From Mariniphaga sediminis (GTDB lineage: Bacteria > Bacteroidota > Bacteroidia > Bacteroidales > Prolixibacteraceae), in NCBI RefSeq assembly GCF_003573545.1, contig NZ_QWET01000007.1, positions 124,001 through 188,000 of the forward strand: a stretch of DNA of 64,000 bases. The letters are read 5' to 3'. A program made the position numbers and the translations under genes. How positions within the stretch are numbered: the stretch's first letter is position 1; every line of letters begins with the position of its first letter. This document shows positions 2,391-20,155 of this stretch, piece after piece. Under the pieces are notes generated by a model that saw only the letters and a program-made list of their open reading frames with translations, was not told the DNA's origin and did no database searches.

Positions 2391-2530
2391 TCATATTTAC
2401 GTTAGCAATAGTATTTTATCAGCTCCAGTGAAATAGATAATTTACATTAATCTATTTAAGAAGTACTTATGTGATGAATTAAAACTAACGCACTGCGCTG
2501 ACCCTGCAATGCATTTATAATTTGTTAGTG
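2391..2530 (-). repeat. left border of cassette array: attC remnant and short attC-like site
   Basis: At 2485-2530 ACTAACG and GTTAGTGG enclose a short arm pair (GCACTGC / GCAATGC), giving a compact site of about 45 bp next to the stop of the DUF6994-like gene. At 2391-2406 CATATTTACGTTAGC resembles the right half of the site at 14207-14329. The 80 bases between them hold no gene. This is the last (3'-most) end of the array as read on the minus strand. Confidence 0.45.
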
Positions 2531-2554
2531 GCTGGCTTTTTTATATTCATTCTC

Positions 2555-3244
2555 TCAGAAACTTTCTAAAATTCTTTTGTTACGACTATTCACCAAATCT
2601 ATTGTTTGAGTTTTATATTTTTTATATTCATCAACTGTTTGAGGTAATGGTGATCGATTAAAGCTGTCAAATGGCAAAGAAAAATTTATTTGCCCTTTTT
2701 TACCAACAAAATCCTGCAACATAAAAAAATCAACATAGCCACTAAAATCAACAAATAAATCAAAAAAATCTTTGTATCTCATAAGTGTATCATAAAGTGG
2801 ACTTTTTTCTTCTTGATAAAAGCGTCTAATGCATTCCAAAGTCAAATCAAACCTGTCGCAAATTATCCTGTTTATACCCCTTGCTTGATTTATAGTAAAA
2901 CCATTCTTATTGTGAGCAGGAAAAATTATATGACCTCCAATAGTACGAACTTTATATTTTAATTCTTCTCTCTCCAAATCAGACAACCAACCATCAAATT
3001 TACCTTTATATTTTCCGTCAAAATGTGGACACATTCTATCGCTAGATAAATTATCGCCTAAGTTGTTTTTTATAAGTAATCTGCCATAGTTGTTGCGTAT
3101 AATTTCCAAATCAAGAGTTTTTCCACACGGCAACGTTTTATTCCATAATAGTTTATGTGCTTTATACAATTTTTGACTGTCAGTATCAGGATCTCCACAA
3201 TTACTATCTTTCCGAAAATCAAAATCGATATTAATTTTATTCAT
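2555..3244 (-). CDS. DUF6994-like protein, unknown function
   Basis: A 229-residue soluble protein. The start at 3244 (MNKINIDFDF) is preferred over an upstream in-frame ATG at 3328 because the family begins with an FDFR segment. FDFRKDSNCGDPDTDS, then a lysine-rich HKLLWNKTLPCG segment, then DRMCPHF near residue 80 match my memory of the DUF6994 family, found singly in many bacteria. No catalytic motif, signal peptide or membrane helix is visible. It lies alone at the distal end of the cassette array with low-GC composition like its neighbours. The family assignment is from memory of the N-terminal pattern and should be treated as moderate; no function is known to me. Confidence 0.6.
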   Translation of the reverse strand: MNKINIDFDFRKDSNCGDPDTDSQKLYKAHKLLWNKTLPCGKTLDLEIIRNNYGRLLIKNNLGDNLSSDRMCPHFDGKYKGKFDGWLSDLEREELKYKVRTIGGHIIFPAHNKNGFTINQARGINRIICDRFDLTLECIRRFYQEEKSPLYDTLMRYKDFFDLFVDFSGYVDFFMLQDFVGKKGQINFSLPFDSFNRSPLPQTVDEYKKYKTQTIDLVNSRNKRILESF

Positions 3245-3374
3245 GTTAAAAATTCGTAGGTTAAAACCTGTCAAGCTTGCCTGTGACTGTTTGGCTATGA
3301 AGCGTAGCTTGTATTGTGCCTGCTGCAAACTATGCTTTATGAGCCTTTTTTAAGCACTGGCTTTTATTATTTAT

Positions 3375-4046
3375 TCATTCAGTAATCACTGATATTCCCA
3401 TTCCATGAATCGAAAATTCTGGATATTCAGTTATTACTGAATCAGGAATATACTCGTTGTAATATTGTTTTTCGAGCAAATGAAACTTCTCAATTTCATA
3501 TCTTCTTGTCGTCTTTCCAAATTGGTCAAGAAAGTTGCTGATTTTTTGTTCAAGCCAGGAGTTCATTAAAAACTCATTTAGCTCTTCGTGCTTAATATTC
3601 TGCTGTCCAAACTGATTGATATAGTCCAGCGAGAGTTCAGTTGTCAAGTCTTTATAAAAAATTGGTGGTTCAAAATAAAGTGAACGGAGATTATCCATGT
3701 CAAAGTCTTCTTTAATCAGGGGTAAGCACTGATTTATCCTGTTAATTGTAGAGGCAAAAAGAGTTGGTTTTTGATTAAATACTCGTAGCTGAACAGAACT
3801 ATCTCTAACATATTCAGTAAGCCCGATGCCAAGATCAAGAGTATCTTGTCCGACTATCCAACAGTAGGTATACGATTTTGAATAGAATCCAATTTCATAT
3901 GACTTGTCAATTTTGTTTTCGATTTTCACCAGAACTGTGTCTTGAGCAGTTTTAACAGTTTCAGAGTCAGTCGACTCTTTGGACTGATTAGAATTATGGC
4001 AGGACAATAATACCAAAGTGATTATGAATGAAATTATCTGTTTCAT
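3375..4046 (-). CDS. putative lipoprotein, unknown
   Basis: A 223-residue protein whose start at 4046 gives a lipoprotein signal peptide: MKQIISFIITLVLLSC with the lipid-attachment Cys at 16, followed by a Ser/Asn/Lys-rich linker. An upstream in-frame ATG at 4115 would bury the signal and is rejected. The mature part is mixed alpha/beta with no motif I recognise. A 130 bp gap separates it from the DUF6994-like gene. A 60 bp segment upstream (4077-4136) resembles the one upstream of the AraC gene at 35.6 kb, suggesting shared control. Confidence 0.7.
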   Translation of the reverse strand: MKQIISFIITLVLLSCHNSNQSKESTDSETVKTAQDTVLVKIENKIDKSYEIGFYSKSYTYCWIVGQDTLDLGIGLTEYVRDSSVQLRVFNQKPTLFASTINRINQCLPLIKEDFDMDNLRSLYFEPPIFYKDLTTELSLDYINQFGQQNIKHEELNEFLMNSWLEQKISNFLDQFGKTTRRYEIEKFHLLEKQYYNEYIPDSVITEYPEFSIHGMGISVITE

Positions 4047-4076
4047 TTTTTTTAGTATGGTACACAATAGATGGGT

Positions 4077-4136
4077 ATATGAAACATTTGACATTTCAAC
4101 GCGATTTTCTATCAAACCGTTACAAAGTTTATTAAA
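4077..4136 (-). repeat. 60 bp element shared with 35643-35702
   Basis: Begins ATATGAAAC and ends TCAAACCGTTACAAAG plus TTTATTAAA. The second copy differs at about ten positions and by one indel. Each copy lies shortly upstream of a minus-strand gene, so a shared promoter or operator is possible. Confidence 0.45.
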
Positions 4137-4208
4137 TGTACTGCCCTTAAAATTAGTGCTTTCAGCTAAATCTGGCCGAGAGCGATGGGAAGATGTGCGG
4201 CTGGAGTC

Positions 4209-5207
4209 TCAATTTAATTCAAAACTATAATTATAGTCAATCAACTTTCTTTCTGCGTTATTATCAATCCAGGCTTTTTCTTTATGACTGATTTCAATAA
4301 TCTCGTTTGTTGATGTGTTTTTAAATCTTTCTGCAACCGACTCTAATATTTGCAATTCATTTTCAGTAAACAATTCCTTGTCAAAAGTCTTGTTTGGATT
4401 TGTTTTAAATTGTTCTCCTGTACCACCATCGGCAAAATTGGTATAATAAATATCCAATTCGTCTTTGTTGGCTAAATATTCAAAAATACTATTGAAATTA
4501 TTAGGTACAGGCCCCATTGGAATGGCTCGATACTGAACTCCACTCATTGAAAATCCTGATTGTTTATGCATGATAAAATCAGCATAGAATAACAGCTTAT
4601 TTAACTTGGTTTTCCATGGTTCAAGTTTCTCGGTAAAAAACACAACCATTTCAGAAAACTTCCTAAAATCTGGTGTTTTAAATCCTGTTAAATTATTGGG
4701 ACGGCATGTGCCAAAGAAGTAATTCTCCAATTGCTTTTCAAACTTGTTCTTCTTTTGCTCTTCCAATAAATTATCTATTGTCTTATGTGTTTTTTCTATA
4801 AATTTCTGGTCAAGTGTTGTGCAGTAATTAACCAGTTTTTTGAACTCATGTGGGTCGTCGGCCAACTGGATTAATTTTGCGTTTGACTGGTTTGGCACTT
4901 CGCCTCCTTCGTATTGACGATATCCGTTTGTGCCAAAACCCAATATCTCGGACATCTTTGCTGCCGAAAGATTGTATTTTTCTCGAATTGAAATAATTTG
5001 TTCCGGAAAGGGGATGCTGTATTTTACCCTGTATTGATTTACTAATTGATTGTAATTCAATTGGGCAAATGCATCATCTTCAAACTGCTCGCCTGTATCT
5101 TCGCATTTGTACGAATGAAATAACACCTTGAATTCGTCTTTGCGAAAACTCATGGTTCTCCACTCTTTTACAATGCTCATTTCTTTACCTGTAAATGGAC
5201 TTTTCAT
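4209..5207 (-). CDS. MqsA-like antitoxin with HTH and C-terminal Panacea (SocA/DUF4065) domain
   Basis: Predicted antitoxin of 332 residues. The N-terminus (MKSPFTGKEM ... YKCEDTGEQF) resembles the MqsA zinc-ribbon fold but with most Cys ligands replaced. An Xre-type helix-turn-helix follows at about 75-115 (LSAAKMSEILGFG..GYRQYEGG). The C-terminal half (about 185-310: KLNKLLFYADF, then YRAIPMGPVP) is the Panacea/SocA domain, known to act as a toxin-neutralising module joined to many toxin types. The start at 5207 is chosen because the longer frame overlaps the toxin gene. It follows the toxin gene by 5 bp, toxin first, as in mqsRA. The HTH probably autorepresses through the two AACTTTAAAGTT palindromes upstream of the toxin. 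Confidence 0.85.
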   Translation of the reverse strand: MKSPFTGKEMSIVKEWRTMSFRKDEFKVLFHSYKCEDTGEQFEDDAFAQLNYNQLVNQYRVKYSIPFPEQIISIREKYNLSAAKMSEILGFGTNGYRQYEGGEVPNQSNAKLIQLADDPHEFKKLVNYCTTLDQKFIEKTHKTIDNLLEEQKKNKFEKQLENYFFGTCRPNNLTGFKTPDFRKFSEMVVFFTEKLEPWKTKLNKLLFYADFIMHKQSGFSMSGVQYRAIPMGPVPNNFNSIFEYLANKDELDIYYTNFADGGTGEQFKTNPNKTFDKELFTENELQILESVAERFKNTSTNEIIEISHKEKAWIDNNAERKLIDYNYSFELN

Positions 5208-5212
5208 GATGT

Positions 5213-5563
5213 TTATTTTTTTAATGGATAATTCATAGGGTGTTCGGCAATATGAAAAGAAATACAAACTGCTCCGTTGTTTTCAATTCCCATACTTACT
5301 TTGATGTACACTTCTTTCTTTTTTACCTGTTTGCCAAAAACCCACATAGGCAATATGCCACGCATTTTTTCGTCTAAAGGACCTTGTGAATAATCTTCAG
5401 CCTTTAACGAACTTATAATTTCTTTACGTTTGGCAGGTGAAATTTCTAAATCGTGCAGCGTTTGTTGATTCTTGCCGCGGTCATCAAGAAACAGTATGCC
5501 GAAAATTTCCATTTTCACCTTTAGTTCCTTTAAGTATTTTTCAACTTCTTGTTTGGATGCCAT
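5213..5563 (-). CDS. MqsR-like toxin (predicted ribonuclease)
   Basis: A 116-residue protein encoded just upstream of the antitoxin. The pattern LHDLEIS...KRKEIISSLK, DYSQGPLDE, MWVFGKQVKKKEVYIKV and CISFHIAEHPM matches the MqsR-like toxins that partner SocA/Panacea antitoxins; MqsR proteins have a RelE-type fold and cut mRNA. Size fits (about 98-120 residues). Catalytic residues cannot be assigned by eye, so activity is inferred from family and gene order. The start MASKQ at 5563 lies about 20 bases downstream of a TATCTTTA -7 box. Confidence 0.75.
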   Translation of the reverse strand: MASKQEVEKYLKELKVKMEIFGILFLDDRGKNQQTLHDLEISPAKRKEIISSLKAEDYSQGPLDEKMRGILPMWVFGKQVKKKEVYIKVSMGIENNGAVCISFHIAEHPMNYPLKK

Positions 5564-5582
5564 ATATAAATTAAAATCGATG

Positions 5583-5664
5583 TAAAGATACGGTGTGTCT
5601 TTGTGTTTTGCAACTTTAAAGTTGATAAAATGTTACTGAATACATTCTGTTGAACTTTAAAGTT
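5583..5664 (-). promoter_or_regulatory. promoter and twin palindromic operators of the toxin-antitoxin operon
   Basis: Two AACTTTAAAGTT palindromes lie at 5612-5623 and 5653-5664, centres 41 bp apart (about four helical turns). The -7 box TATCTTTA is at 5590-5583 (minus), and a TTG inside the proximal palindrome sits 20 bases upstream of it. The sequence is close to the known MqsA operator (AACCT-TTT-AGGTT). Repression by occlusion of the -33 element is inferred. Confidence 0.6.
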
Positions 5665-5707
5665 GGTTTTAACAAATTAAATCTCATTTCAAAATACTTA
5701 ACCATTG

Positions 5708-5831
5708 AACAATGTAGGCGGGTTGACAAAAAAGCATGTGTGTGGTTGTGAAGGGCAGTCAAATTCTTGCTTTTGTGTGCTGGTATTTCCAACAGAAATC
5801 CCACCCGACCCGCAGGAGGTGACAATTTGTT
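5708..5831 (-). repeat. attC-like site (degenerate)
   Basis: Left arm AACAATGTAGGCGGGTTG pairs imperfectly with a right arm containing CGACCCGC and ACAATTTGTT. The right-hand box GTTGTGTTG matches the box at the far end of the next cassette (CAATACAAG at 6558-6566) at 7 of 9 positions. Confidence 0.5.
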
Positions 5832-5845
5832 GTGTTGCGTTTTTT

Positions 5846-6424
5846 TTAATTTAAAAATTTAATTGATGGAAAATATTTCACTTTCCCTTTTCTGTAGACA
5901 ATAATTGTATTTAAAATAATCAATAAAATATTATATAAATATAATCCTCCGTATATAAAAAGTATGGAGCCAAATCCAAACGGAATCAGTGAAACACGTA
6001 AAATCACACTTAGGGTTGGTAAAATGAAGACAATAAATAGTATTATCGTCCATGTAATCTGAAAGTTCAGGATGGATTTGCCAATAGAATCTACATTTCT
6101 AATTTTGTCCTTTTTAATAACCCAAATGGCCAATGGAATTATTGTTCCGAGCAATGGAAATGCTAAAAATCCTAACTGAGATAAATTGAGCATTGTTAGT
6201 ATATTCTTATCTTCTTGTACTCTCCATTCAATTACATCATCTGGTGATACTTTTAATGCTACAGCTAATCTTTTCAGAGTATCGCCTCGTGGAACAGATT
6301 CTCCATTTTCAATACGTTGAATAGTTCTCAGACTTAATCCTGTCTTGTCCGCAAGCTCCTCTTGGGATAGTCCTTGCTTAATTCTTAAATCTTTTACTCT
6401 TTTTTGTAATTCTAAATTTTTCAT
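5846..6424 (-). CDS. Xre-family HTH protein with DUF4870-like membrane domain
   Basis: A 192-residue membrane-bound putative regulator. Residues 8-62 form a clear Xre/Cro helix-turn-helix (LRIKQGLSQEELADKTGLS, then RTIQRIENG). Residues 75-185 hold four hydrophobic segments in the DUF4870 pattern, including PLAIWVIKKDK, a GKSILNFQ motif and a final hydrophobic hairpin. This domain pairing is frequent in Bacteroidota; its target and signal are unknown. It occupies its own cassette between attC-like sites at 5708 and 6564, and no partner gene is adjacent. Confidence 0.85.
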   Translation of the reverse strand: MKNLELQKRVKDLRIKQGLSQEELADKTGLSLRTIQRIENGESVPRGDTLKRLAVALKVSPDDVIEWRVQEDKNILTMLNLSQLGFLAFPLLGTIIPLAIWVIKKDKIRNVDSIGKSILNFQITWTIILFIVFILPTLSVILRVSLIPFGFGSILFIYGGLYLYNILLIILNTIIVYRKGKVKYFPSIKFLN

Positions 6425-6563
6425 TGCTCATGAATTTTAAATTATTGAGTAAAAGTATATTGTCTCAATAGTCAGTTTAACGTCGAGTTTACGACTTTTA
6501 TATGCCAACTTTGTCATTAGACCAAATTTCAGTTATTAGTACCAGTTTGTCAATATGCAATAC

Positions 6564-6675
6564 AAGGGTTGGCATAAGTTTTTATAGCGGATTTCCGGAG
6601 CGACTTTCTGGCGGACAGAACGGAAAATAGTGCGGGAATGTCCCACTGCACCCGCCATAAAATTTATACATTGTT
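6564..6675 (-). repeat. attC-like site
   Basis: Stem arms CATAAGTTTTTATAGCGG and CCGCCATAAAATTTATAC pair well. The right box GTTAGCTTTA is exactly complementary, over ten bases, to the box TAAAGCTAAC at the far end of the adjoining cassette (7302-7311). The left edge reads AAG instead of AAC, so this end looks decayed. Confidence 0.7.
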
Positions 6676-7284
6676 AGCTTTAGTTTTTTTATGTTTGTCA
6701 GTGCGGTACTCCAATTGCTTCCTGGTTATAAATTTATAGACACGTTTTGATTCCGATAAAGAAAAAATGAAAAGAATTGTCACAATTATAAATTCTCCAA
6801 TAATGCCAAATTTTAGCCAGTTATTATTAAACTCCACAAATACTTTATTAAAGACAATGATGAAAAACATTGAAACTAATATCATGATTGATATTATAAT
6901 CCAATAAAAAATACTTCTTGGTTTGAAAATGTAATTATTTACTATCTCTTTCTCCCAAAGACTTATGTTTTCATTACAGTAACTGTTGATTTTTTCTTCA
7001 AGTTTGATAATATAACCGCTATGAATATTTTGCACGCACATTTGAGAAATTGCATATAATACAAAAACAACTGCGAGCTGCGATAAAATTAATAAAATAA
7101 GGACTCTTGTTTGTTCGTGTTTAATTATATTCTCGTCCCAATATATCCCAAGTGCAAAAAGTAATATTGTCAGAAGAACAAAAATAGATTTTTGCATACC
7201 TTGTTCAAAAAGTATAATTTCTTTTCTGAGTTCATTCTTTTCGCTAAGAATTATATCTATCTTCTTGTCAACAGAAATTTTCAT
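6664..7284 (-). CDS. membrane protein, unknown
   Basis: A 206-residue protein. The start at 7284 (MKISVDKK) is preferred; the longer frame to 7377 would translate the attC site. Four hydrophobic segments are visible, at about 37-54, 60-80, 130-150 and 160-180, with a charged N-terminus and C-terminus. No family is recognised. The reading frame runs through the recombination box GCTAAC into the attC stem and stops at 6664, so its last residues (KANNV) are encoded by the attC itself. It is the only gene of a cassette whose end boxes match perfectly, the cleanest single-gene cassette here. Confidence 0.7.
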   Translation of the reverse strand: MKISVDKKIDIILSEKNELRKEIILFEQGMQKSIFVLLTILLFALGIYWDENIIKHEQTRVLILLILSQLAVVFVLYAISQMCVQNIHSGYIIKLEEKINSYCNENISLWEKEIVNNYIFKPRSIFYWIIISIMILVSMFFIIVFNKVFVEFNNNWLKFGIIGEFIIVTILFIFSLSESKRVYKFITRKQLEYRTDKHKKTKANNV

Positions 7285-7308
7285 AGTAGTAAATTCAAAA
7301 TTAAAGCT

Positions 7309-7432
7309 AACGGTCACTTGTAAGTTGTCGCTGCGAATTGCGGGTGATTGGCCGTCCGCAGGACGAAAGACAATCATGCGGGAATCCGAGGAGACAATCT
7401 ACACCAAACACAGTAATGCAATTTACAAAACC
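7309..7432 (-). repeat. attC-like site
   Basis: Left end GCTAACGGTCACTTGTAAG is nearly identical to the sites at 10.67 and 17.1 kb. The right arm (CAATTTACAAAAC) is diverged and lacks a clean GTT box, so this side is probably decayed. Confidence 0.6.
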
Positions 7433-7444
7433 TATGTGTAGGTT

Positions 7445-8080
7445 TTATTCCATTTCATCAATAAATGTTTGTAATTTATCAATATATTTTCCAACGTGAA
7501 ATCCATCTATAAGTGAATGATTTGCCTGTACCGAAAAAGGCAACAATGTCTTTTCTCCTTGTTTATAATATTTTCCCCATGATATTCTCGGAACCGAATC
7601 GTTTTTATTCAATGATATAGTATGGGAGATATGGGTAAAAGAAATCCAGGGAATACAGGTAATGTATATCAAATCATCTCTTCCAATTAGTTTGTCCAGT
7701 CCAAAATAATCCTTTTGATTTTTACTTGTTTGATTAGCTGTTTTTTCAAACTCACAAATATCATCGGTTAACTCTACTGTTACCATTTTGAACAAATCAT
7801 CTTCTTTGTTTTTGTTCATGTCGGTAAAAGAAGGATGTATCTTATCGTGTAACACGACTTTATCATCCCGTATCCGGTATTTAAAGTTTTCAATCTGGTT
7901 TATTACTGTCGTGGCAGCAAATACCATTGAATAATAAAACGACAATCCTTTTTGTTTGGTAAACTTCATAAAATTGGAGACATCTATATCCATACAAATA
8001 TTGAATTGCGGATAATCCATTCTGTGAAAAAACTCATAGTGTTCTTTTCGTTTCCAATTTTCTAAATCAATAAATTTCAT
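7445..8080 (-). CDS. chloramphenicol acetyltransferase (CatA)-like acyltransferase
   Basis: A 211-residue protein, within 10 of the usual CatA length. The C-terminal motif NHSLIDGFHVGKYIDKLQ aligns with the CatA HHAVCDGFH signature and keeps the catalytic His and the Asp-Gly. WKRKEHYEFF at the N-terminus and PWISFTHISH are also family features. The first His of the HH pair is Asn and the Cys is Ile, as in several uncharacterised CatA homologues, so chloramphenicol resistance should not be assumed. It is the only gene of its cassette. The acetyl-CoA-dependent transfer reaction is established for the family; the substrate here is unknown. Confidence 0.8.
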   Translation of the reverse strand: MKFIDLENWKRKEHYEFFHRMDYPQFNICMDIDVSNFMKFTKQKGLSFYYSMVFAATTVINQIENFKYRIRDDKVVLHDKIHPSFTDMNKNKEDDLFKMVTVELTDDICEFEKTANQTSKNQKDYFGLDKLIGRDDLIYITCIPWISFTHISHTISLNKNDSVPRISWGKYYKQGEKTLLPFSVQANHSLIDGFHVGKYIDKLQTFIDEME

Positions 8081-8131
8081 TTTTTTTTGTCTGTCAATTG
8101 TACAATGCTGTGTTCTTTTTTGCTTCTGACT

Positions 8132-8223
8132 AACGTAAAAATAAACATCAGATTATCAGTCGTTTGCTTTTTTGATGTTTTGCTCATTTTCATCTGTTCT
8201 ACTCCTTCAATTTTACATTAGCA
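8132..8223 (-). repeat. diverged copy of the attC-like cassette leader
   Basis: Starts GACTAACGT and ends ACATTAGCA, with shared inner words (TGTTTTGCT, TTCATC), resembling the 128 bp leader at 13.4, 17.0 and 18.1 kb. It separates the CatA-like gene from the Imm63 gene. Confidence 0.4.
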
Positions 8224-8236
8224 TAAAAAGTCATTG

Positions 8237-8761
8237 CTAGCAGTTGTTTTTCCCATTTTCAGGATACTTTTCAAATGCTAATTTTTCAATTTCTTCTTCT
8301 GGCAATCCTTTTTCTTTTAACTCTCTGTAATATGTTGCCCTGAGTCCAGCTAAGTCATCGAACGGATGACTTTCTAGAATTTGCAAATGCTCCTCATGCT
8401 CTTTTCTACTCCAATTTTCGTTAAGAACAGAAAGAAGTTCTATTTGCTTGTCAAAGGCTATTCTTCTGCAATCTTTGTCCTCAATTCTATTTTTTAGTTC
8501 ATATTTAAAAGCCATTGAGGTGGTAATACCTGAAAAAATCCAGTATAAAAGTTCATCAAGATTTTCAGTTGTTCTTCTTTCAAATTCTGCTCCTCTCTCA
8601 ATTAGCACATAATGAAGTCTCCCTTGTTTGTCTATTTCAATAAGTGGTAGCGCGTCTCCAGATGAGAATCTATGTGTCGGTAACAAATTGGCAGGTGCAT
8701 CAATCTTTTTCGCCAATTCTTCGACTTTTTTTCTAATATGTCGATACCCAATTTTTGCCAT
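8237..8761 (-). CDS. Imm63-family immunity protein
   Basis: A 174-residue soluble protein. The core YVLIERGAEFERRTTENLDE, then LLYWIFSGIT, then DKDCRRIAFDKQIELL and a Trp about eight residues on, matches the Imm63 family of predicted immunity proteins that protect against polymorphic toxins. No toxin gene is next to it. It starts one base after the stop of the barstar gene, so the two are almost certainly cotranscribed and perhaps translationally coupled. The target toxin is unknown. The stop TAG at 8239-8237 lies beside a diverged attC-like leader. Confidence 0.75.
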   Translation of the reverse strand: MAKIGYRHIRKKVEELAKKIDAPANLLPTHRFSSGDALPLIEIDKQGRLHYVLIERGAEFERRTTENLDELLYWIFSGITTSMAFKYELKNRIEDKDCRRIAFDKQIELLSVLNENWSRKEHEEHLQILESHPFDDLAGLRATYYRELKEKGLPEEEIEKLAFEKYPENGKNNC

Positions 8762-8762
8762 T

Positions 8763-10793: not shown

Positions 10794-10801
10794 ACCATTA
10801 G

Positions 10802-12612: not shown

Positions 12613-12616
12613 TTTT

Positions 12617-12650: not shown

Positions 12651-12657
12651 CTGGGTT

Positions 12658-13242: not shown

Positions 13243-13372
13243 TCGAATTCGTTTTAGCTTTATAATAGGTTGTCGTCTTGTTATATTATTATTTACTACT
13301 AAAAGTTAATTCTAAGATTTTTTTGATGGTAATTTTTGTTTGTCCGCTTGGGTTACTTCCTTTTTTAACCTT

Positions 13373-13500: not shown

Positions 13501-13505
13501 CCCAT

Positions 13506-13628
13506 AACGGTCACTTGTATGTGGTCGGGCGAGATTTCGAAAAGAAATCCAATCAGACCCGCAGGAAAGTGGGCAATTGGTCTGACCTGTCAGACCGCTA
13601 AAACCCCGCCTGCCATATACAATTTGTT
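13506..13628 (-). repeat. attC-like site
   Basis: Left arm AACGGTCACTTGTATG and right arm GCCATATACAATTTGTT frame an inner palindrome GGTCTGACCTGTCAGACC. The right box GTTAGCGGC pairs with GCCGCCAAC at 14201-14209 (8 of 9). Confidence 0.7.
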
Positions 13629-14145
13629 AGCGGCTGGTGTTATTTTTTTTATTCTTAATCTTTTTCCATTTTTCTTTAATATCTTTTTCACCATCGAAAT
13701 AGTTTACTTGTGAATCGTTTTTAAATATCTCCATTGTTGGTGCAATTAAAATTTTATTCGAATCAGGGTATACTGCAACATCGTATCCAATAAATGTCCT
13801 AACGTCCAGGAATATACAAACCTCACTGGTGTGATTATATAATTGGTGAGCACCCTTTTCCCCTTTCTCGAAGAAGATCAAATCTCCAGTATTTACAATT
13901 TCTAATCCTTGGGGAGTTCTCAATGTTGCAGAACCAGAAATTATCATAAAAAGCTCTTCTGCATACCGATGAAAATGGTAGGGAGCTGAGTATTGGTCGG
14001 GATTTAATTGTCTTAAATCAAAGTTTAAGTTTTCAGGATTAATTCCCTTATTTATTCTTGAAACATCTGTGAAAATCTTGTAATTGTCAGTTTTATTAGG
14101 TGTTTCTTGAAATTCTCTTTGGTCTGATTTCAAAATTTTTGCCAT
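13627..14145 (-). CDS. cupin-domain protein
   Basis: A 172-residue single-domain cupin. The metal-site pattern H-F-H-R-Y-A-E-E at about 56-63 (HFHRYAEELF), a GxxxxxTPxG strand and GDLIFFEKGEKGAHQLYN with the distal His form the two cupin motifs. Such proteins are isomerases, dioxygenases or sugar-binding proteins; the substrate cannot be read. The C-terminal Lys/Asn-rich tail (WKKIKNKKNN) ends at a TAA supplied by the attC recombination box (GCTAAC), so the stop depends on the cassette junction. Its cassette lacks the 128 bp leader. Confidence 0.8.
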   Translation of the reverse strand: MAKILKSDQREFQETPNKTDNYKIFTDVSRINKGINPENLNFDLRQLNPDQYSAPYHFHRYAEELFMIISGSATLRTPQGLEIVNTGDLIFFEKGEKGAHQLYNHTSEVCIFLDVRTFIGYDVAVYPDSNKILIAPTMEIFKNDSQVNYFDGEKDIKEKWKKIKNKKNNTSR

Positions 14146-14206
14146 AATCTAAAATCTTTTTAAAATCAAAACTATCAAGTTGCTTTATCGTTTTCCACTT
14201 GCCGCC

Positions 14207-14329
14207 AACGTGTTTGTATATGAAAAGTTGCGTTTATTTACACGCAACTTTTCGGTTTAATTCGGATCATAAATATATGAAAAAGCGAATGGATTAAGTA
14301 TTTGTCAGCCATTTTTTATATACGTTGTT
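14207..14329 (-). repeat. attC-like site with internal perfect hairpin
   Basis: Outer arms (TGTATATGAAAA and TTTTTTATATACG) carry AAC and GTT edges. Inside, GAAAAGTTGCG and CGCAACTTTTC form a perfect 11 bp stem at 14222-14253. The right box GTTAGCTGC matches GCCGCTAAC at 17102-17110 at 8 of 9 positions. Confidence 0.65.
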
Positions 14330-14359
14330 AGCTGCTGTGCTTTCGGTGAACATTGTTAA

Positions 14360-15283
14360 TCAGCAACAACCTGTTTCTCCGCTTGATTCCGTTCCGCAAC
14401 AACTTGCTTTTTCAGATGTAGTATTTTTTTCGCTTCCACAACATCCACTATCGGTCGTTTCGCAACAGCTACCTTCGTCTAATTTGTCCGCATAGATTGT
14501 TACGCTATAAATTCCTGAACCTGATTGTTTAAATTTATCCAATTCTTCTTGATTTAGGTATTTTAACAACAAGTCGTTTGGTAAGTCTATTTTTCGTTCT
14601 GTTTTAATTTGGATATTCTTAAATCCTGCCGATTTAATAATTCCTAAATATTCGCCTTTTTCACTTGCTCCTGCCACGCAACCTGAATATAACTCTGCTG
14701 CCTCCAAAATTCCTTTTGGAAGTGAACCAATATAAACAATATCGGAAATACTAAAATGCCCACCTGTTTTTAAAGTTCTGAAAACTTCGTTAAATGCTTT
14801 TGTCTTGTTAGGTACAAGGTTCATAACACAATTACTTATTACCACATCTGCTACGGAACTTGTAATATTCTGCATATCTTCGATTTCACCTAATACAAAT
14901 TCTACATTTTGATAGCCCAATTTTTGAGTGTTCTGCAAGGCTTTTATAACCATTTCGGGTGTCATATCAATCCCAATTACCTTTCCAGTTTCGCCTACAA
15001 TCCTACGAGCAATAAATGCATCATTTCCAGCACCAGAACCAAGGTCGATAACTGTGTCGCCTTCGTTAATATTTGCGATTTCCGTTGGAAGTCCACAACC
15101 CAATGATAAGTCTGAGTCTTTTTCATAGCCTTCTATGTTTTCATAGTTTTCAGCCATTGAAGTGCTAAACTCGTCTGTGGTGCAACATTCTGAATCTGTA
15201 GAACAGCAACCTACTTGAATATTGCCTTTCGCAATGTTTCCATAGGATTTTCTGATTTCTTCTTTAATTGTTTCTGTATACAT
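14360..15283 (-). CDS. arsM: arsenite S-adenosylmethionine methyltransferase
   Basis: Methylates As(III) with SAM to volatile or less toxic methylarsenicals in the cytoplasm. 307 residues. SAM-binding motif I is VIDLGSGAGNDAF near residue 78. The three conserved As(III)-binding Cys are present: LGCGLP near 63, ISNCVMN near 151 and YSGCVAG near 202. The Cys-pair-rich N-terminus (CCSTDSECC) and C-terminus (four further Cys pairs) may capture or hand over arsenic. It is the last gene of an operon with a SigZ-like sigma factor, a Cys-rich exported peptide and a PIG-L deacetylase, all in one cassette about 2.9 kb long. No arsR, arsB or arsC is in the window. Confidence 0.93.
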   Translation of the reverse strand: MYTETIKEEIRKSYGNIAKGNIQVGCCSTDSECCTTDEFSTSMAENYENIEGYEKDSDLSLGCGLPTEIANINEGDTVIDLGSGAGNDAFIARRIVGETGKVIGIDMTPEMVIKALQNTQKLGYQNVEFVLGEIEDMQNITSSVADVVISNCVMNLVPNKTKAFNEVFRTLKTGGHFSISDIVYIGSLPKGILEAAELYSGCVAGASEKGEYLGIIKSAGFKNIQIKTERKIDLPNDLLLKYLNQEELDKFKQSGSGIYSVTIYADKLDEGSCCETTDSGCCGSEKNTTSEKASCCGTESSGETGCC

Positions 15284-15295
15284 TCTTTTTGAAAT

Positions 15296-16015
15296 TTAAT
15301 TGTTTATTAATTCGGTTATTGATGAAAGCATTTTTGGATGCGTTTCATTTTCTAATTCAAAATAAGTTTTATCTCCAATTCTGTCAATTACATTAGTGGT
15401 CTTGACCATTTCTTGGTAGGTGTCGTAACAAAGCAAGGCCTCTTTCATTTTTTGAATATTGGCATTGCCCAATTTTTCGGTTACCATAATATCCTCTTTT
15501 TTCGTCCAAGTAACTCTTGGTATTCCGCCTTCAAAGAACATAGGAAGTCCAGTATCTATAACGGTGAAATATGCAAGTCGTTTCCAAAATTGTAATGTAT
15601 CTTTTTTGCCGAAAAAAAGCCTTTTGATGATATGATGCAGTGCAATATGGTCGTGATGTCCACTTCCACCGTGAACAGGATAGGTGATGACTACACTGGG
15701 TTGGTAGTGCTGCAACCAATTTAATATTTCGATTTCAAGATGAAAAGGATTGACTTTTGCAAGTCCACCATCTTGGTAATCTAAAATGGTCATTTCTGAA
15801 ATGCCTAAAGTCTTTTGCACTTTTTGCATTTCTTTTTCTCTTACTGCTCCCATTTCAGAAATGGACAAACCAAGGTTGTGTCTTACTTTGGTAGCTCCTC
15901 CTTTTGTAAGTGTCAGAAGAATAACCTCGTTTCCTTCTTTAATCTGTTTGTCGATTGCTCCAGCTGGTCCAAATGATTCGTCATCAGGATGTGGAACGAT
16001 GTACATGATTTCCAT
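15296..16015 (-). CDS. PIG-L/LmbE-family deacetylase
   Basis: A 239-residue protein. The zinc-site motif PHPDDE lies at residues 8-13 when started at the ATG 16015, the position usual for the family; an in-frame ATG at 16048 would add 11 residues. GGSGHHDH near 120 supplies the later His ligand. Members remove N-acetyl groups from GlcNAc conjugates (BshB, MshB, LmbE-like). In this arsenic-linked operon a role in a low-molecular-weight thiol such as bacillithiol is possible but not shown. It ends 12 bp before arsM. Confidence 0.88.
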   Translation of the reverse strand: MEIMYIVPHPDDESFGPAGAIDKQIKEGNEVILLTLTKGGATKVRHNLGLSISEMGAVREKEMQKVQKTLGISEMTILDYQDGGLAKVNPFHLEIEILNWLQHYQPSVVITYPVHGGSGHHDHIALHHIIKRLFFGKKDTLQFWKRLAYFTVIDTGLPMFFEGGIPRVTWTKKEDIMVTEKLGNANIQKMKEALLCYDTYQEMVKTTNVIDRIGDKTYFELENETHPKMLSSITELINN

Positions 16016-16069
16016 ATTGTCTTTTGATTTGTTTATATAAACACGCAAAACGGTTAAAAAAGACGCAAA

Positions 16070-16093
16070 AAAAAGCGAGCTACGGCTCGCTTT
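16070..16093 (-). terminator. rho-independent terminator after the Cys-rich peptide gene
   Basis: On the minus strand AGCGAGCC-GTA-GCTCGCT is followed by a run of T, directly after the stop at 16100. It would attenuate transcription between the sigma-factor/peptide pair and the deacetylase/arsM pair. Confidence 0.75.
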
Positions 16094-16099
16094 AGAAAA

Positions 16100-16273
16100 T
16101 TAGTCGCAACTTTTAGTGCAACAACTTTTTGTTTCCAAATCGGTCGGACAACATTTTGTTTTATCGCAACATTCGGTTTTTGTTTTTTCGGTTACTTTTT
16201 GGTCATTTATTCCTGCATACACTGCAAGTGAAGTAACAAAAGCAACCAAAACAATGATTACAATTTTTTTCAT
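16100..16273 (-). CDS. 57-residue Cys-rich exported peptide
   Basis: The ATG at 16273 opens MKKIVIIVLVAFVTSLAVYA, a signal peptide or membrane anchor, followed by a 37-residue tail with seven Cys in the pattern ECC, KCC, SCC, SC. The Cys pairs resemble the C-terminal tail of the neighbouring ArsM. It lies between the SigZ-like gene (75 bp upstream) and the deacetylase, and ends at a strong terminator. I do not recognise a named family. A periplasmic metal or arsenic chelator or sensor is inferred from composition and neighbours. Confidence 0.75.
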   Translation of the reverse strand: MKKIVIIVLVAFVTSLAVYAGINDQKVTEKTKTECCDKTKCCPTDLETKSCCTKSCD

Positions 16274-16347
16274 TGTTGTTAAAATTTTGGGATTCAGGCA
16301 ATATCACCCTTATGTATATGATGTAGAAATATAAAAAAGGCGCAAAA

Positions 16348-16908
16348 TTAGGAACAAGCGCAATTCTTATCTTCTGTGTCCCTCAAGTTTCCATAACTGT
16401 CGCTTGGATAATTGCAACAAGCTAATATGAGTTCTTTCAGTTTTTCTTTGCCTCTCTGAACTCTTGACTTTGCACCTGAATAGGAAATATTAAGCTGTTC
16501 CGCCAAATCTTTTTGACTGATATTTTCAAATTCCGATTTGGTCAATGCCACTTGGTATTTTTCTGGAAGTTGTTTGATGAAAGGTTTTATACAGCAATCT
16601 GCGATAGTAGCGTTTAAAGATTCGGTTTCCTCTTCGGAAATAAGCGTATAGTCGTTTTCAATGTTATTTTTTTTGTCAGATTTTCTAAAGTGGTCGATTG
16701 TAGTGTTACGTGCTATTCCATAAATATATTGCTGTACACTTTTAGCTTGTGCAATTTTGTCAGCATTATTTATTATTTTAAGAAATACATCCTGTAAAAT
16801 GTCATTGGCTATATTTTCGTCCTTTACTTTTTTTAGTATGAAGTTTTTTAATTCTATATGGAAATCATTCCAAATATTTTCGGTTATGTCGTTCATTAAA
16901 TTTGTCAA
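16348..16908 (-). CDS. sigZ: SigZ-like ECF RNA polymerase sigma factor
   Basis: A 186-residue sigma-70-family protein. Region 2 spans about 12-80 (DILQDVFLKI, SVQQYIYGIARNTTIDHFR) and region 4 about 112-160 (LPEKYQVALTKSEFENISQK, then LAEQLNISYSGAKSRVQRG). The C-terminal tail (ACCNYPSDSYGNLRDTEDKN, CACS) is Cys-rich with a YGN motif, as in SigZ proteins, and could sense metal or thiol state. No anti-sigma gene follows. It heads the Cys-rich peptide/deacetylase/arsM operon, which it may control. A start at 16896 (MNDITEN) is also possible. Confidence 0.88.
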   Translation of the reverse strand: MTNLMNDITENIWNDFHIELKNFILKKVKDENIANDILQDVFLKIINNADKIAQAKSVQQYIYGIARNTTIDHFRKSDKKNNIENDYTLISEEETESLNATIADCCIKPFIKQLPEKYQVALTKSEFENISQKDLAEQLNISYSGAKSRVQRGKEKLKELILACCNYPSDSYGNLRDTEDKNCACS

Positions 16909-16975
16909 TTTTGTTCCTTTCCTATACTAGGACGTAGAAAAGTTTAAAAGGACGCAAAATGTTTTTTCAGCATTT

Positions 16976-17102
16976 CGACTAACGTCAAAGTTAATCTTTT
17001 GATTTATTGATATTTAGTTGTTTTGCTTTTTCTCATTAAATAATGGCTAAAAAAAGACGTTAGCAAAAAAACTCAACTGTTTTACAACCAGTAGGAGGAT
17101 TG
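16976..17102 (-). repeat. cassette leader repeat, copy 2
   Basis: Same sequence as 18061-18188 from CGACTAACGTC onwards. It sits between the SigZ-like gene start (16908) and the attC at 17108. Its TAACTTTG box (minus, 16993-16986) would start transcription about 70 bases before the sigma-factor ATG. Confidence 0.75.
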
Positions 17103-17107
17103 CCGCT

Positions 17108-17233
17108 AACGGTCACTTGTAAGTTGTCATTGCTGATTTCGGAGAGTGTTCCTGTCCGAAAGATACGGAACTGCGAAACGAGAATCCGCAGTTGGCGTAC
17201 CACCAAACCCCGCCCTGCAATATGTACATTGTT
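17108..17233 (-). repeat. attC-like site
   Basis: AACGGTCACTTGTAAGTTG ... CCCCGCCCTGCAATATG TACATTGTT. The right box GTTATAGCC is perfectly complementary to GGCTATAAC at 18188-18196. The central part (TCCTGTCCGAAAGATACGGA and the ATCCGC stem) is shared with the sites at 10.7 and 18.2 kb. Confidence 0.8.
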
Positions 17234-17267
17234 ATAGCCAGTTTTTTATTTCATTTATCTCGTAATT

Positions 17268-17732
17268 TTACTTCTTATTCCAGTTTAGGTCAAACTTTTT
17301 AATTATATCCCCATTTTCGTTAATCGAATCATTTGGAATAGCAGGACTTAACGAATGAAATGGGGAATATCCTTCTTGTTTATGATACCAGTGTTTTTCG
17401 AGTTTTGAATATCTTCCACAGCATTCTAAAGAAAAATATGTGAATTTATCATCTGCATTTTCTATCTGAACATTTATCCATTCAGGGATTGCATATTCCA
17501 TCCACAATAAATCAATTACCTCTTCTGCTTCAATTGGTTTTGATGTTTGATTCAATTTTTCTACTTCTGGAAATGTAATCTCACCGTCTTCTAATCCATC
17601 TCTAAAGTTGGAACTTATTTTAACAATAAATTTAAATTGTTCTGGCAGTTTATTAATTACCATCTCCTTTGTGAAAGGGTAAACTTTATTTACTGCTTTT
17701 ATCAGATTATTATAGAATTCTTTTTTGTTCAT
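17268..17732 (-). CDS. hypothetical protein
   Basis: A 154-residue soluble protein without signal peptide. It begins MNKKEFYNNLIKAVNKVYPF and has an acidic middle (FRDGLEDGEITFPEVEKL), an aromatic segment (LLWMEYAIPEWINV) and a conserved-looking YFSLECCGRYSK. The layout resembles small immunity-type proteins, but I cannot place it in a family. It shares one cassette with the 80-residue gene upstream, 74 bp apart. Confidence 0.65.
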   Translation of the reverse strand: MNKKEFYNNLIKAVNKVYPFTKEMVINKLPEQFKFIVKISSNFRDGLEDGEITFPEVEKLNQTSKPIEAEEVIDLLWMEYAIPEWINVQIENADDKFTYFSLECCGRYSKLEKHWYHKQEGYSPFHSLSPAIPNDSINENGDIIKKFDLNWNKK

Positions 17733-17806
17733 TATTTATTATACATCGTTGAAACATATTTATCTCAAACTCTTTTTCAGTTGTTTTTACTTTCATAATG
17801 TTTAGG

Positions 17807-18049
17807 CTATTCACATTGAAAGTTTCTACCTATTTCTTTGTCGAATTCATTAATTAGTTTTTCCAGAATTTCCAATGGCAAATCAGTTCGGAATGTTGAA
17901 ATTTGAATCTTCTTTAAATTATCATTTCTAAAAATCTCGGCAACAATTTCATTTCTATCATTATCCCAAAGTTCAATGCCGAGTCCATCTCGGACAATGT
18001 CACTGGCAATTATTATTTTATAATTGATATTGTCAACTGTAATACTCAT
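17807..18049 (-). CDS. small hypothetical protein
   Basis: An 80-residue acidic protein: ASDIVRDGLGIELWD, then VAEIFRND and LPLEILEKLINEFDKEIG. The RDGLGIEL and EIFR words recur in small Bacteroidota proteins of unknown function that I recall only in general terms. The start at 18049 lies 12 bases from the 128 bp leader, whose -7 box would give a leader RNA of about 16 bases. It is the first gene of a two-gene cassette. Confidence 0.65.
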   Translation of the reverse strand: MSITVDNINYKIIIASDIVRDGLGIELWDNDRNEIVAEIFRNDNLKKIQISTFRTDLPLEILEKLINEFDKEIGRNFQCE

Positions 18050-18060
18050 CTTTTAAAATT

Positions 18061-18188
18061 CCGACTAACGTCAAAGTTAATCTTTTGATTTATTGATATT
18101 TAGTTGTTTTGCTTTTTCTCATTAAATAATGGCTAAAAAAAGACGTTAGCAAAAAAACTCAACTGTTTTACAACCAGTAGGAGGATTG
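18061..18188 (-). repeat. cassette leader repeat, copy 3
   Basis: 128 bp, from CCGACTAACGTC to CAGTAGGAGGATTG. Read on the minus strand it goes from the recombination box through GCTAACGTC to TAACTTTGACGTTAGTCGG just before the gene. No reading frame of note inside. Confidence 0.75.
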
Positions 18189-18193
18189 GCTAT

Positions 18194-18319
18194 AACGGTT
18201 GGTACATGTTGTCGGGGCGGATTTCGGAGAGCGTTCCTGTCCGGTAGGACACGGAACTGCGAAACGAGAATCCGCAGTTGGCGTACCACCGAACCCCGCC
18301 CTGCAATATGTACTGTGTT
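18194..18319 (-). repeat. attC-like site
   Basis: AACGGTTGGTACATGTTGTC pairs with GCCCTGCAATATGTAC. The right box GTTGTGTGTA is complementary over ten bases to TACACACAAC at 20110-20119, delimiting the 579-codon cassette. Confidence 0.8.
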
Positions 18320-18331
18320 GTGTGTAGTTTT

Positions 18332-20071
18332 TTATTTTTCATTTAACGAATTGCTTGTATTTCTCAGTCCTATATAAAGTTTATCATATATTTTTTCACA
18401 TGCTGTCAGATAGTTGCCGGTTATTTCGTTTGAGTCTATTCCTAAAGACTTAAAAGCTTTAATAAGTTTTTGGACTGAATTACTTCCTTCTTGATGTGAG
18501 TCTAATTGCCTTAAAATATTTAGTGCTTCCAAAAGTTTCATTAATTCCATTTCTTCATAGTCATTCACAAGTCGTGAATTTATTTCACCGGAATCATTTT
18601 TTAAGTCCAATCCAGTTTCATTTGAGATTCTGATATAATTGAGAATGAGATTTAACAGTTTGATGCTTCTAAACTGTTCAGAAGGTGACTTTTTGAAATT
18701 ATCGAGGTCAACTCTTATAATATTTTTTAGAATATTTCGCAATTCTTTCTCTACCAGATTTTCTACAAGAAATAAATGTAATTTCTTCTGTCGGACAAGG
18801 AATGCATCTTTTGATAATGTATGCGCTAGATGGTGCGTGATTGGTTTTATGCTGGCATTATTATACCAAGCGTAATAATTCAGGTCTTTTCTATTTATTT
18901 TTATTAAATCCTGGCTTGAGAGTTTTAATCCAAAATTGTCGTTTAAAATCGTCGCTAGAAGTTCGCCAAAACGAAGATAACTGAATACTAGTTTTTTTGA
19001 CCTTTCTGCTATATTTTCTTTGGTTTCATCAATCTTGGATTTATCCACCTGATATTTATTCCAATAGGATATAACTTCATTAGGAGTTCCTTCATATAAT
19101 TTAAAAAGTTCGATTTCAATGTGATTTCTTCCAATTCGATTACATCTTGTGACAGACCATTGATTTTTATAGCTCACGCCACCAGTTTCAGGGCAGACGC
19201 TATAATTCTCGTCTTGTTCATATTTTCCAAGGACTTCATCCGAAACGTAAACATAATCCCAATGTTTTGCATTTAATCGGGTAATTTTATCCTTATACCC
19301 TGACCAGTAGTGAGCTTTTTCTTTTCTGTCCCATTTGCTGAAAGGAATATTATTTCCAAGCTTTATTTGCCTAAAACCCGTTACCTCAGTGAAAATCTCA
19401 TTTTCGGAAATTTTATTGATTCGAAAATGGCTAAATTTTGTAGTTTTTTCGAAAAATCTATTCTGTCCGAGTAGCCCTTCGAGTTCGGTATTCAGTGGTA
19501 ATATTCTTGTTTCACAATAAACTTGGATTAGCGTTTTCTTTTTTAGCATCAAATAATCCTGTAAATAATCTTTACGGATTTTGACATAGCTTTTTGAATA
19601 AATTGGAAAATCATAAACAGATTTGGGAATGGACTGCACAACATCCATCTGCGGTTTACTTAAATCATCCCAATTTATATTTGTTTCTGTCAATCTTGGG
19701 GTTAAACCATAAGTCAATAAAAAGTATGGGTCAATCTGGAAGGTGATATTATTCGCAGATTCCCAAGATATAACAAGAGGTTTTACCTTGTCAAGTCCTT
19801 CTACTCTTGTAACAAAAACAGTTGATTCTCCTTCATACTCGTAATTCTCGTCATATGCTGGACGCACTGAGCTATCCGATGTTTGATTTATTTCATCGGG
19901 TTTTATATGTTCTATTAGTTCAGGGTTAATCAGTAAAGTTTGATAATCTCGTGTAGAATTTATTCCAGATTGCAATTCATGTGTATTTAATTCACTAACA
20001 TAAATGTATTCTCTTTCTATAGGAGAAAAATTTTTTACGTCGGCAAATATGTCGGGGAACCAATTTTCCAT
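18332..20071 (-). CDS. large protein of unknown function, sole cargo of a cassette
   Basis: A 579-residue soluble protein with no signal peptide or membrane helix; far longer than usual cassette cargo. The N-terminal third is mixed (VFVTRVEGLDKVKPLVISWE, then a YFLLTYGLTPR segment and YVKIRKDYLQDYLMLKKKTL). The middle is rich in Trp/Tyr (AHYWSGYKDK, WDYVYVSDEV) with CPETGG. The C-terminal 250 residues are mostly helical (HHLAHTLSKDAFL, LLEALNILRQL). I see no nuclease, ATPase, HEPN or peptidase signature. Large lone cassette genes are often defence-related, but nothing in the sequence proves that. It is the first gene of the array as read on the minus strand. Confidence 0.8.
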   Translation of the reverse strand: MENWFPDIFADVKNFSPIEREYIYVSELNTHELQSGINSTRDYQTLLINPELIEHIKPDEINQTSDSSVRPAYDENYEYEGESTVFVTRVEGLDKVKPLVISWESANNITFQIDPYFLLTYGLTPRLTETNINWDDLSKPQMDVVQSIPKSVYDFPIYSKSYVKIRKDYLQDYLMLKKKTLIQVYCETRILPLNTELEGLLGQNRFFEKTTKFSHFRINKISENEIFTEVTGFRQIKLGNNIPFSKWDRKEKAHYWSGYKDKITRLNAKHWDYVYVSDEVLGKYEQDENYSVCPETGGVSYKNQWSVTRCNRIGRNHIEIELFKLYEGTPNEVISYWNKYQVDKSKIDETKENIAERSKKLVFSYLRFGELLATILNDNFGLKLSSQDLIKINRKDLNYYAWYNNASIKPITHHLAHTLSKDAFLVRQKKLHLFLVENLVEKELRNILKNIIRVDLDNFKKSPSEQFRSIKLLNLILNYIRISNETGLDLKNDSGEINSRLVNDYEEMELMKLLEALNILRQLDSHQEGSNSVQKLIKAFKSLGIDSNEITGNYLTACEKIYDKLYIGLRNTSNSLNEK

Positions 20072-20109
20072 TTAATTATCTTATCTCAATGTTCGTTCTA
20101 TTTTAAAAT

Positions 20110-20155
20110 TACACACAACGACTGTATATATGTACTTCCCTCCCTGCACTGTGAT
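20110..20155 (-). repeat. right border of cassette array (half attC-like)
   Basis: TACACACAACGACTGTATA followed by CCCTGCACTGTG keeps the AAC box and fragments of both arms but not a full stem. Beyond it begins the glycan locus with a different GC content. Confidence 0.55.

What the first reader, a model, noticed from the sequence alone, without database searches (positions are those of the whole stretch)
2391..20155. Integrase-less integron cassette array (CALIN) of about 17.7 kb in a Bacteroidota chromosome
About ten imperfect palindromes with AAC...GTT edges separate minus-strand gene units. The box at one end of a unit is the reverse complement of the box at its other end: 6673/7311 (10 of 10), 12643/13508 (9 of 9), 17231/18196 (9 of 9), 18317/20119 (10 of 10), and 8 of 9 for two more. 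This is the rule for attC R'' and R' boxes. Cargo is mostly toxin-antitoxin, immunity and unknown genes. No tyrosine recombinase is in the window. Cassette arrays are well described in Vibrio and Pseudomonas and much less so in this phylum.
Basis: partly seen in the sequence, partly recalled or inferred. Interest (0 to 1): 0.7.

Follow-up and report, generated by a model that had tools for sequence, protein, structure and literature searches.

The report
Gene cassettes of an unrecognised integron type
A stretch of swappable genes in this Bacteroidota bacterium belongs to a gene-capture system that works like an integron but uses a different recombinase and differently built recombination sites, and it occurs in about two thirds of the Bacteroidia genomes sampled, where surveys for the classic integrase report almost none.

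Summary
The array is real. Seven sites match a covariance model, all on the gene strand, and the box rule holds at the stated coordinates. It is absent from a same-genus genome, where the flanking genes lie 123 bp apart. Several of its genes sit in other arrays elsewhere. The window has no recombinase, but the genome has one: a 374-aa tyrosine recombinase on contig C3, directly upstream of an attI-like palindrome and its own cassette array (50 sites genome-wide).

Relatives of this recombinase start such arrays, usually 35-133 bp from the stop codon, in 40 loci across the phylum. They are related to integron integrases (IntI) but lack the IntI-specific insertion. Most carry an N-terminal HARP-like domain instead (weak evidence). 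The sites share the R-box core (AACA...CGTT) with attC, but have no extrahelical bases in L''. They carry conserved A.C mismatches, which become G.T wobbles on the other strand. Strand choice by these wobbles, and activity itself, are inferred.

Sites occur in 43 of 62 sampled Bacteroidia genomes; canonical IntI in 1 of 62. "CALIN" is right locally but misleading: this is a satellite array of a distinct integron type. I found no report of it in the open literature searched.

The parts
20111..20150 (-). attI-like half site at the 5' end of the array (AGTACATATATACAGTC|GTT)
   Evidence: 18 of 20 bases equal to the right half of the attI-like palindrome next to the recombinase on C3 (L007:9522-9590); box pairs with 18317
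18317..20119 (-). cassette: 579-aa protein of unknown function
   Evidence: box GTTGTGTGT / ACACACAAC; ORF 18332-20071
18191..18322 (-). attC-like site
   Evidence: R2 90.7 bits, E 4e-21 (in the training set); fold z -4.25 on the + strand
17231..18196 (-). cassette: shared leader + 80-aa and 154-aa ORFs
   Evidence: boxes 9/9 complementary; ORFs
17105..17236 (-). attC-like site
   Evidence: R2 E 1.2e-9, not in training set
14325..17108 (-). cassette: shared leader + SigZ-like sigma factor, small ORF, PIG-L deacetylase, ArsM-like arsenite methyltransferase
   Evidence: box GTTAGCTGC vs GCCGCTAAC, about 8 of 9 (sequence); families
14204..14332 (-). attC-like site
   Evidence: R2 E 1.9e-15, not in training set
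13626..14218 (-). cassette: cupin protein
   Evidence: 80% identical copies in L223 and L224; match starts at 13624-13625, at the box
13503..13631 (-). attC-like site
   Evidence: R2 E 2.3e-16 (in the training set)
12643..13508 (-). cassette: shared leader + outer-membrane beta-barrel protein
   Evidence: boxes GTTATGGGC / GCCCATAAC 9/9
12617..12652 (-). truncated attC-like site (R''-L'' half only)
   Evidence: homologous to the left half of other sites (D3); copies of the Fic block in L217 and L218 end exactly at 12617
11389..12616 (-). Fic gene block (SoFic-like)
   Evidence: 91-92% identical blocks in other genomes, L217/L218; PADLOC SoFic 149 bits
10790..11388 (-). cassette: 183-aa protein
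   Evidence: 86% copy in L222, next to a weak R2 match
10668..10796 (-). attC-like site
   Evidence: R1 112 bits (in R1 training); R2 E 1.5e-5 at 10683-10781
7445..10524 (-). cargo block: CAT-like acetyltransferase, Imm63, Barstar, beta-lactamase-fold protein
   Evidence: Pfam; Imm63 alone lies between two sites in L226
7306..7442 (-). attC-like site (degenerate R'')
   Evidence: R2 E 1e-8
6673..7311 (-). cassette: 237-aa membrane-type protein
   Evidence: boxes GTTAGCTTT / AAAGCTAAC 9/9
6561..6678 (-). attC-like site
   Evidence: R2 E 7.6e-10
2555..6424 (-). cargo block: DUF6994, 246-aa ORF, SocA/MqsA-type antitoxin with 116-aa partner, HTH-DUF4870
   Evidence: Pfam; SocA/MqsA unit 87-93% identical in L215/L216, DUF6994 84-85% in L219/L220
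2484..2530 (-). truncated site at the distal end
   Evidence: CACTAACAAATTATAAATGCATTGCAGGG...GCGTTAG in cassette orientation; not reported by R2

Best explanation
The array is a satellite cassette array of a Bacteroidota-type integron. Each cassette carries its gene(s) plus one about 122-137 nt attC-like site. A tyrosine recombinase encoded elsewhere in the genome (C3:27419-28540) most likely inserts, excises and exchanges cassettes at the invariant CGTT. One DNA strand, probably the one opposite the genes, folds into a hairpin in which the two R boxes and two L boxes pair. New cassettes enter at an attI-like palindrome just behind the recombinase gene; the window array keeps half of such a palindrome at its 5' end. 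Shown here: sites, box rule, covariation, conserved A.C mismatches, adjacency to the recombinase, absence of the IntI insertion, presence/absence between strains. Inferred: catalysis by this recombinase, single-strand folding in vivo, choice of strand through G.T wobbles instead of extrahelical bases, service of the window array in trans, and hairpin recognition by the N-terminal HARP-like domain.
For: Box rule 100 of 124 site pairs at 6/6; for 58 earlier pairs, 1.2% with boxes paired at random. Stem covariation on 60 sites: 97.1% paired vs 66.6% shuffled, 14 of 14 L-stem pairs change on both sides, score 0.684 vs 0.141, and at most 0.08 when slid. A.C at three fixed positions, 60/60, 60/60 (conditioned) and 58/60; in 158 sites found by the box rule alone, A after AAC 153/158, C before GTT 156/158, and A.C in 108 of 131 L boxes. 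In 40 loci the first cassette starts 35-133 bp (378 in this genome) behind the recombinase stop, after a palindrome. Recombinase and sites co-occur: odds ratio 11 over 248 phylum genomes, 14 within Bacteroidia, where canonical IntI is over cut-off in 1 of 62. Catalytic R-K-H-R-H-Y invariant in 30 of 30. IntI4 (2a3v) aligns in two pieces, its residues 181-235 without counterpart. Own genome: 50 sites, the longest run starting at the recombinase. Empty site in a same-genus genome and shared cassettes in other arrays.
Against: No recombination was observed; all evidence is comparative. In the window array two sites are truncated and one has a degenerate R'' box, so this array may be partly inactive. 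The bottom strand's greater fold stability (137 of 147) partly follows from A.C becoming G.T. Several sampled families have a short recombinase without the N-terminal domain, so that domain is not essential to the system. Nine of 43 site-positive Bacteroidia genomes lack a recombinase at the threshold used. The empty-site comparison cannot tell gain from loss.
Confidence: 0.85

Rival explanations
1. Canonical CALIN: ordinary attC sites left after loss of, or served by, a classic IntI integrase.
For: Same box rule and the same R-box core AACA...CGTT as attC; canonical IntI exists in other classes of the phylum (70 of 248).
Against: No IntI over cut-off in this genome and 1 of 62 in Bacteroidia. 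Arrays next to canonical IntI in the same phylum have L'' one to three bases longer than L' (extrahelical bases), and R2 finds none of them in 15 of 16 phylum loci or in two plasmid loci. A different recombinase sits at the head of the arrays.
Confidence: 0.06
2. Relic: the system is as described, but this particular array is a dead remnant that no longer exchanges cassettes.
For: Truncated sites at 2484, 12617 and 20111; several genes now share one unit (7445-10524, 2555-6424) without sites between them; no recombinase nearby.
Against: The four right-hand sites are intact, with boxes matching 8-9 of 9; the genome keeps a full-length recombinase and many near-identical sites; 80-93% identical cassettes in other genomes point to recent exchange somewhere.
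Confidence: 0.3
3. The sites are recombined as double-stranded DNA or cruciforms, not as one folded strand.
For: The attI-like sites are palindromes; the palindrome of the circular cassette extends past the R boxes (+9 to +11).
Against: Fixed A.C polarity in almost every site breaks dyad symmetry in a strand-specific way that a duplex substrate would not need.
Confidence: 0.15
4. Intergenic palindromic repeats (terminators, MITE or REP-like) unrelated to cassettes.
For: Imperfect palindromes between genes, related to one another.
Against: A repeat family does not make the two ends of each gene unit complementary with a different box for every unit, nor start behind a recombinase gene; chains of 4 or more were seen in 0 of 168 shuffles.
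Confidence: 0.01

Closest known systems
Integrons with IntI (class 1, Vibrio superintegron, Salinibacter ruber)
   Same: Recombinase gene, attI-like site, one-way cassette array, sites with R and L boxes, complementary R''/R' across each cassette, AACA...CGTT core
   Different: Recombinase without the IntI insertion; usual form has an N-terminal domain and lies in the same direction as the cassettes; L'' has no extrahelical bases, but conserved A.C mismatches; attI-like site is a palindrome behind the gene; complementarity extends 9-11 nt beyond GTT
CALIN (clusters of attC lacking integron integrases, IntegronFinder)
   Same: Cassette array without a recombinase beside it, neighbouring sites under 4 kb apart
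   Different: Sites are of the variant type and the genome carries the likely cognate recombinase elsewhere
XerA / XerC / XerD simple tyrosine recombinases
   Same: Same fold; archaeal XerA (4a8e, 5hxy) is the best structural and sequence match; NF040815 just over cut-off (220.7 vs 220)
   Different: Array-associated, separate from this genome's own XerC/D-like genes on C1 and C34; groups with IntI, not with these two, in the tree
HARP domain of SMARCAL1 (fork and branched-DNA recognition) and DUF5710
   Same: N-terminal 80 residues: best two PDB fold matches are 4o66; hhalign P 1.9e-4; DUF5710 in 8 of 30 members, best 2.4e-4
   Different: Fold match not significant (E 0.25); never described on a tyrosine recombinase to my knowledge

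Membership tests
Integron (canonical) | IntI integrase with the integron-specific additional domain | tested here: not met
   Best hit in the genome 137 bits as one piece (211 bits as a whole protein) against a cut-off of 265; insertion absent
Integron (canonical) | attI insertion point next to the integrase gene | tested here: met
   Palindrome plus first box 378 bp behind the recombinase on C3; 35-133 bp in 39 other loci
Integron (canonical) | Cassette array whose R'' and R' boxes pair within each cassette | tested here: met
   100 of 124 pairs at 6/6; window pairs
Integron (canonical) | attC R-box core AAC...GTT | tested here: met
   AACA/CGTT 60 of 60
Integron (canonical) | Extrahelical bases in L'' | tested here: not met
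   L'' never longer than L' in 60 sites; 39 equal, 21 with one extra base in L'; A.C mismatches instead
Integron (canonical) | Match to the IntegronFinder attC model | not testable with these tools
   Model not held; Rfam gave no hit in the window
Integron (canonical) | Recombination of the folded bottom strand | not testable with these tools
   Bottom strand folds better in 137 of 147 sites, which partly follows from the mismatch pattern
CALIN | At least two attC within 4 kb of each other, no IntI nearby | tested here: inconclusive
   Met for the variant sites; canonical attC not shown
HARP domain proteins | Sequence or fold similarity to HARP | tested here: inconclusive
   Top rank but E 0.25; Pfam HARP E 0.12 in 2 of 30; hhalign P 1.9e-4

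The most novel reading that the evidence does not exclude
Bacteroidia carry their own widespread integron class, with a HARP-like-domain recombinase that needs no IntI insertion and hairpin sites in which strand choice is set by G.T wobbles rather than extrahelical bases. It may preserve a form of the system older than IntI, since IntI branches among these recombinases in the tree (rooting uncertain).
Probability: 0.5. Interest if true: 0.87.

Novelty: new variant of a known kind. Interest (0 to 1): 0.78.

Why it matters
The integron surveys that I could read define an integron by IntI with its extra domain, held necessary for activity (Messier and Roy 2001, as cited in PMC2426708). IntegronFinder 2 (PMC9024848) names only Salinibacter ruber as a Bacteroidetes genome with a complete integron. 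If the system described here is active, much cassette traffic of Bacteroidia (toxin-antitoxin, immunity, candidate defence, metal and drug-related genes) has been missed. It would also let two questions be tested: how an integron recombinase picks one folded strand without extrahelical bases, and where IntI came from.

Tried and rejected
Rfam search of the window: nothing. IntI by TIGR02249 in this genome: only sub-threshold hits. Folding single window sites: both strands fold better than shuffles in some sites, not a clear separator alone. Sequence search of the N-terminal domain in PDB: no real hit. A raw box scan alone is only mildly above chance in the window (20 hits), so it was replaced by site models and chains. 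A covariance model of canonical attC was considered and not built: too few clean sites were at hand, and MAFFT aligns such palindromes poorly. A clean empty site for the lone higBA unit was not obtained (G008 has other DNA there). Literature: eight searches of the open-access library gave no description of this system; subscription papers and preprints are not covered.
Full report
OBSERVATION. The region 2391-20155 was read and its ORFs and repeats listed. All main genes are on the minus strand. The scan for fully complementary boxes alone gives 20 pairs in 21 kb, so the boxes by themselves are weak evidence in the window. The sites are strong evidence. A covariance model (R2) of 60 sites from recombinase-linked arrays, of which two come from this window, finds seven sites in the region, all on the minus strand, five of them outside the training set. 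Three more boxes belong to truncated or half sites at 2484-2530, 12617-12652 and 20111-20150.

THE RECOMBINASE. TIGR02249 finds no integron integrase over its cut-off in the 5.83-Mb genome. The best hit, a 374-aa protein on contig C3 (L007:9917-11041), is a tyrosine recombinase just over the cut-off of NF040815. Its own locus explains it: directly behind its 3' end come an attI-like palindrome and cassettes separated by the same kind of site as in the window. A model search of the genome gives 50 sites at E up to 0.1. The longest run leads from the recombinase to the end of contig C3, with further groups on C1, C5, C12, C67 (this window) and several small contigs. So the window array is one of several satellite arrays.

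GENERALITY. Homologues in 30 loci of the same family and 80 named loci of the phylum (including Draconibacterium orientale, Marinilabilia, Winogradskyella, Aquimarina, Flavobacterium, Algoriphagus) were examined. Arrays lie behind the recombinase, in the same direction. A chain search that uses only the box rule finds runs of 3 to 12 cassettes; runs of 4 or more occur in 0 of 168 shuffles. In 40 loci the first cassette starts 35-133 bp behind the stop codon (378 bp in this genome), in most after a short palindrome. Over 124 site pairs, 100 obey the box rule at 6/6; for 58 earlier pairs the figure was 46, against 1.2% when boxes are paired at random.

THE SITES. In 60 diverse sites the stems covary (97.1% paired against 66.6% in shuffles; 14 of 14 L-stem pairs with changes on both sides). 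Three positions are A.C in 60, 60 and 58 of 60 sites; the middle one was a condition of the search, the other two were not. In 158 sites found without any structure condition, A follows AAC in 153, C precedes GTT in 156, and the central L-box pair is A.C in 108 of 131. On the other strand these are G.T wobbles. In the circular cassette the pairing continues past the boxes, with a further A.C at +8 in 78 of 104 and pairing again at +9 to +11. Canonical attC sites of IntI arrays in the same phylum have L'' one to three bases longer than L', that is, extrahelical bases, and R2 does not find them; only one IntI locus, L242, has R2 sites nearby, in a genome that also has the other recombinase. L'' is never longer than L' in the 60 sites here.

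THE PROTEIN. The catalytic residues R232, K257, H321, R324, H347 and Y356 are invariant in 30 homologues. IntI4 (2a3v) aligns in two pieces and its residues 181-235, the integron-specific insertion, have no counterpart. The N-terminal 80 residues form a confident small domain in the AlphaFold2 model. It is likely HARP/DUF5710-like: the two best PDB matches are the SMARCAL1 HARP domain, but at E 0.25; hhalign P is 1.9e-4; DUF5710 matches 8 of 30 members. A second form of about 280 aa lacks this domain and lies divergent from its arrays, as IntI does. In a tree, both forms group with IntI apart from this genome's two Xer-like proteins, IntI on a long branch beside the short form; the root is not established.

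DISTRIBUTION. Of 248 genomes of the phylum, 127 have R2 sites and 82 the recombinase at E up to 1e-70; 70 have both (odds ratio 11, p 8e-15). Within Bacteroidia (62 genomes) 43 have sites, 38 the recombinase and 34 both (odds ratio 14, p 3e-5). Canonical IntI is over cut-off in one of these 62 and common only in the other classes. The genomes are related, so these p-values are too small; the adjacency is the better evidence.

MOBILITY. In the same-genus genome G008 the two genes that flank the array lie 123 bp apart; whether the window genome gained the array or G008 lost it is open. Window genes recur at 79-93% identity in other genomes: the cupin cassette, with the match starting at the box (L223, L224); Imm63 between two sites (L226); the Fic block, ending exactly at 12617 (L217, L218); and the SocA/MqsA unit and DUF6994 gene (L215, L216, L219, L220).

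MECHANISM. Most likely cassettes are excised and inserted at CGTT by this recombinase acting on one folded strand, as in integrons; the invariant core does not tell the exact cut. The fixed polarity of the A.C mismatches suggests that the strand opposite the genes, with G.T wobbles, is the substrate. The joint absence of the IntI insertion and of extrahelical bases, which that insertion contacts in the IntI complex (established knowledge, entry 2a3v), fits a different mode of recognition. These steps are inferences.

LITERATURE. IntegronFinder 2 reports a complete integron in Bacteroidetes only for Salinibacter ruber (PMC9024848). Earlier surveys required the IntI additional domain (PMC2426708). 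Smyshlyaev et al. note the insertion as essential for integron function but not fully conserved in their integron-like subgroup (PMC8138268).

VERDICT. This is an array of a distinct integron type, common in Bacteroidia. I rate it a new variant of a known kind, with activity untested.

Noticed in passing
window 42197-42995: A lone cassette outside any array: higB/higA-like toxin-antitoxin pair with one intact attC-like site (R2 E 4e-7); boxes match 8 of 9 and the right junction reads CGGT, as if inserted at a secondary target. Absent at the same place in G008, which has other DNA there.
   Followed up: partly
window 13361-13500, 16963-17103, 18049-18190: The same about 140-bp leader starts three different cassettes, just upstream of the gene; it has a 9-bp inverted repeat (CTAACGTC...GACGTTAG) and TAACTTTG, which fits the Bacteroidetes -7 promoter motif. 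Only one more copy in the genome, in the C12 array. Perhaps a travelling promoter.
   Followed up: partly
L039 and L066 (genome G029): Two recombinases of one genome share a nearly identical N-terminal domain, although the whole proteins are only distantly related, as if that domain were swapped or homogenised within a genome.
   Followed up: no
L007:6468-8858: A cassette of the recombinase-led array on C3 encodes an AAA_13 ATPase that matches the PADLOC candidate defence family PDC-S06 (235 bits).
   Followed up: no
L242 (genome G124): An array of the new site type lies about 4 kb from a canonical IntI gene; the genome also has the Bacteroidota recombinase elsewhere.
   Followed up: no
L061 (genome G027): About ten near-identical 294-aa tyrosine recombinases repeated through one genome, of unknown role.
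   Followed up: no
window 361-2160 and 20220-24903: The array sits inside a sulfatase / Gfo-Idh oxidoreductase gene cluster whose order is kept without the array in G008.
   Followed up: yes
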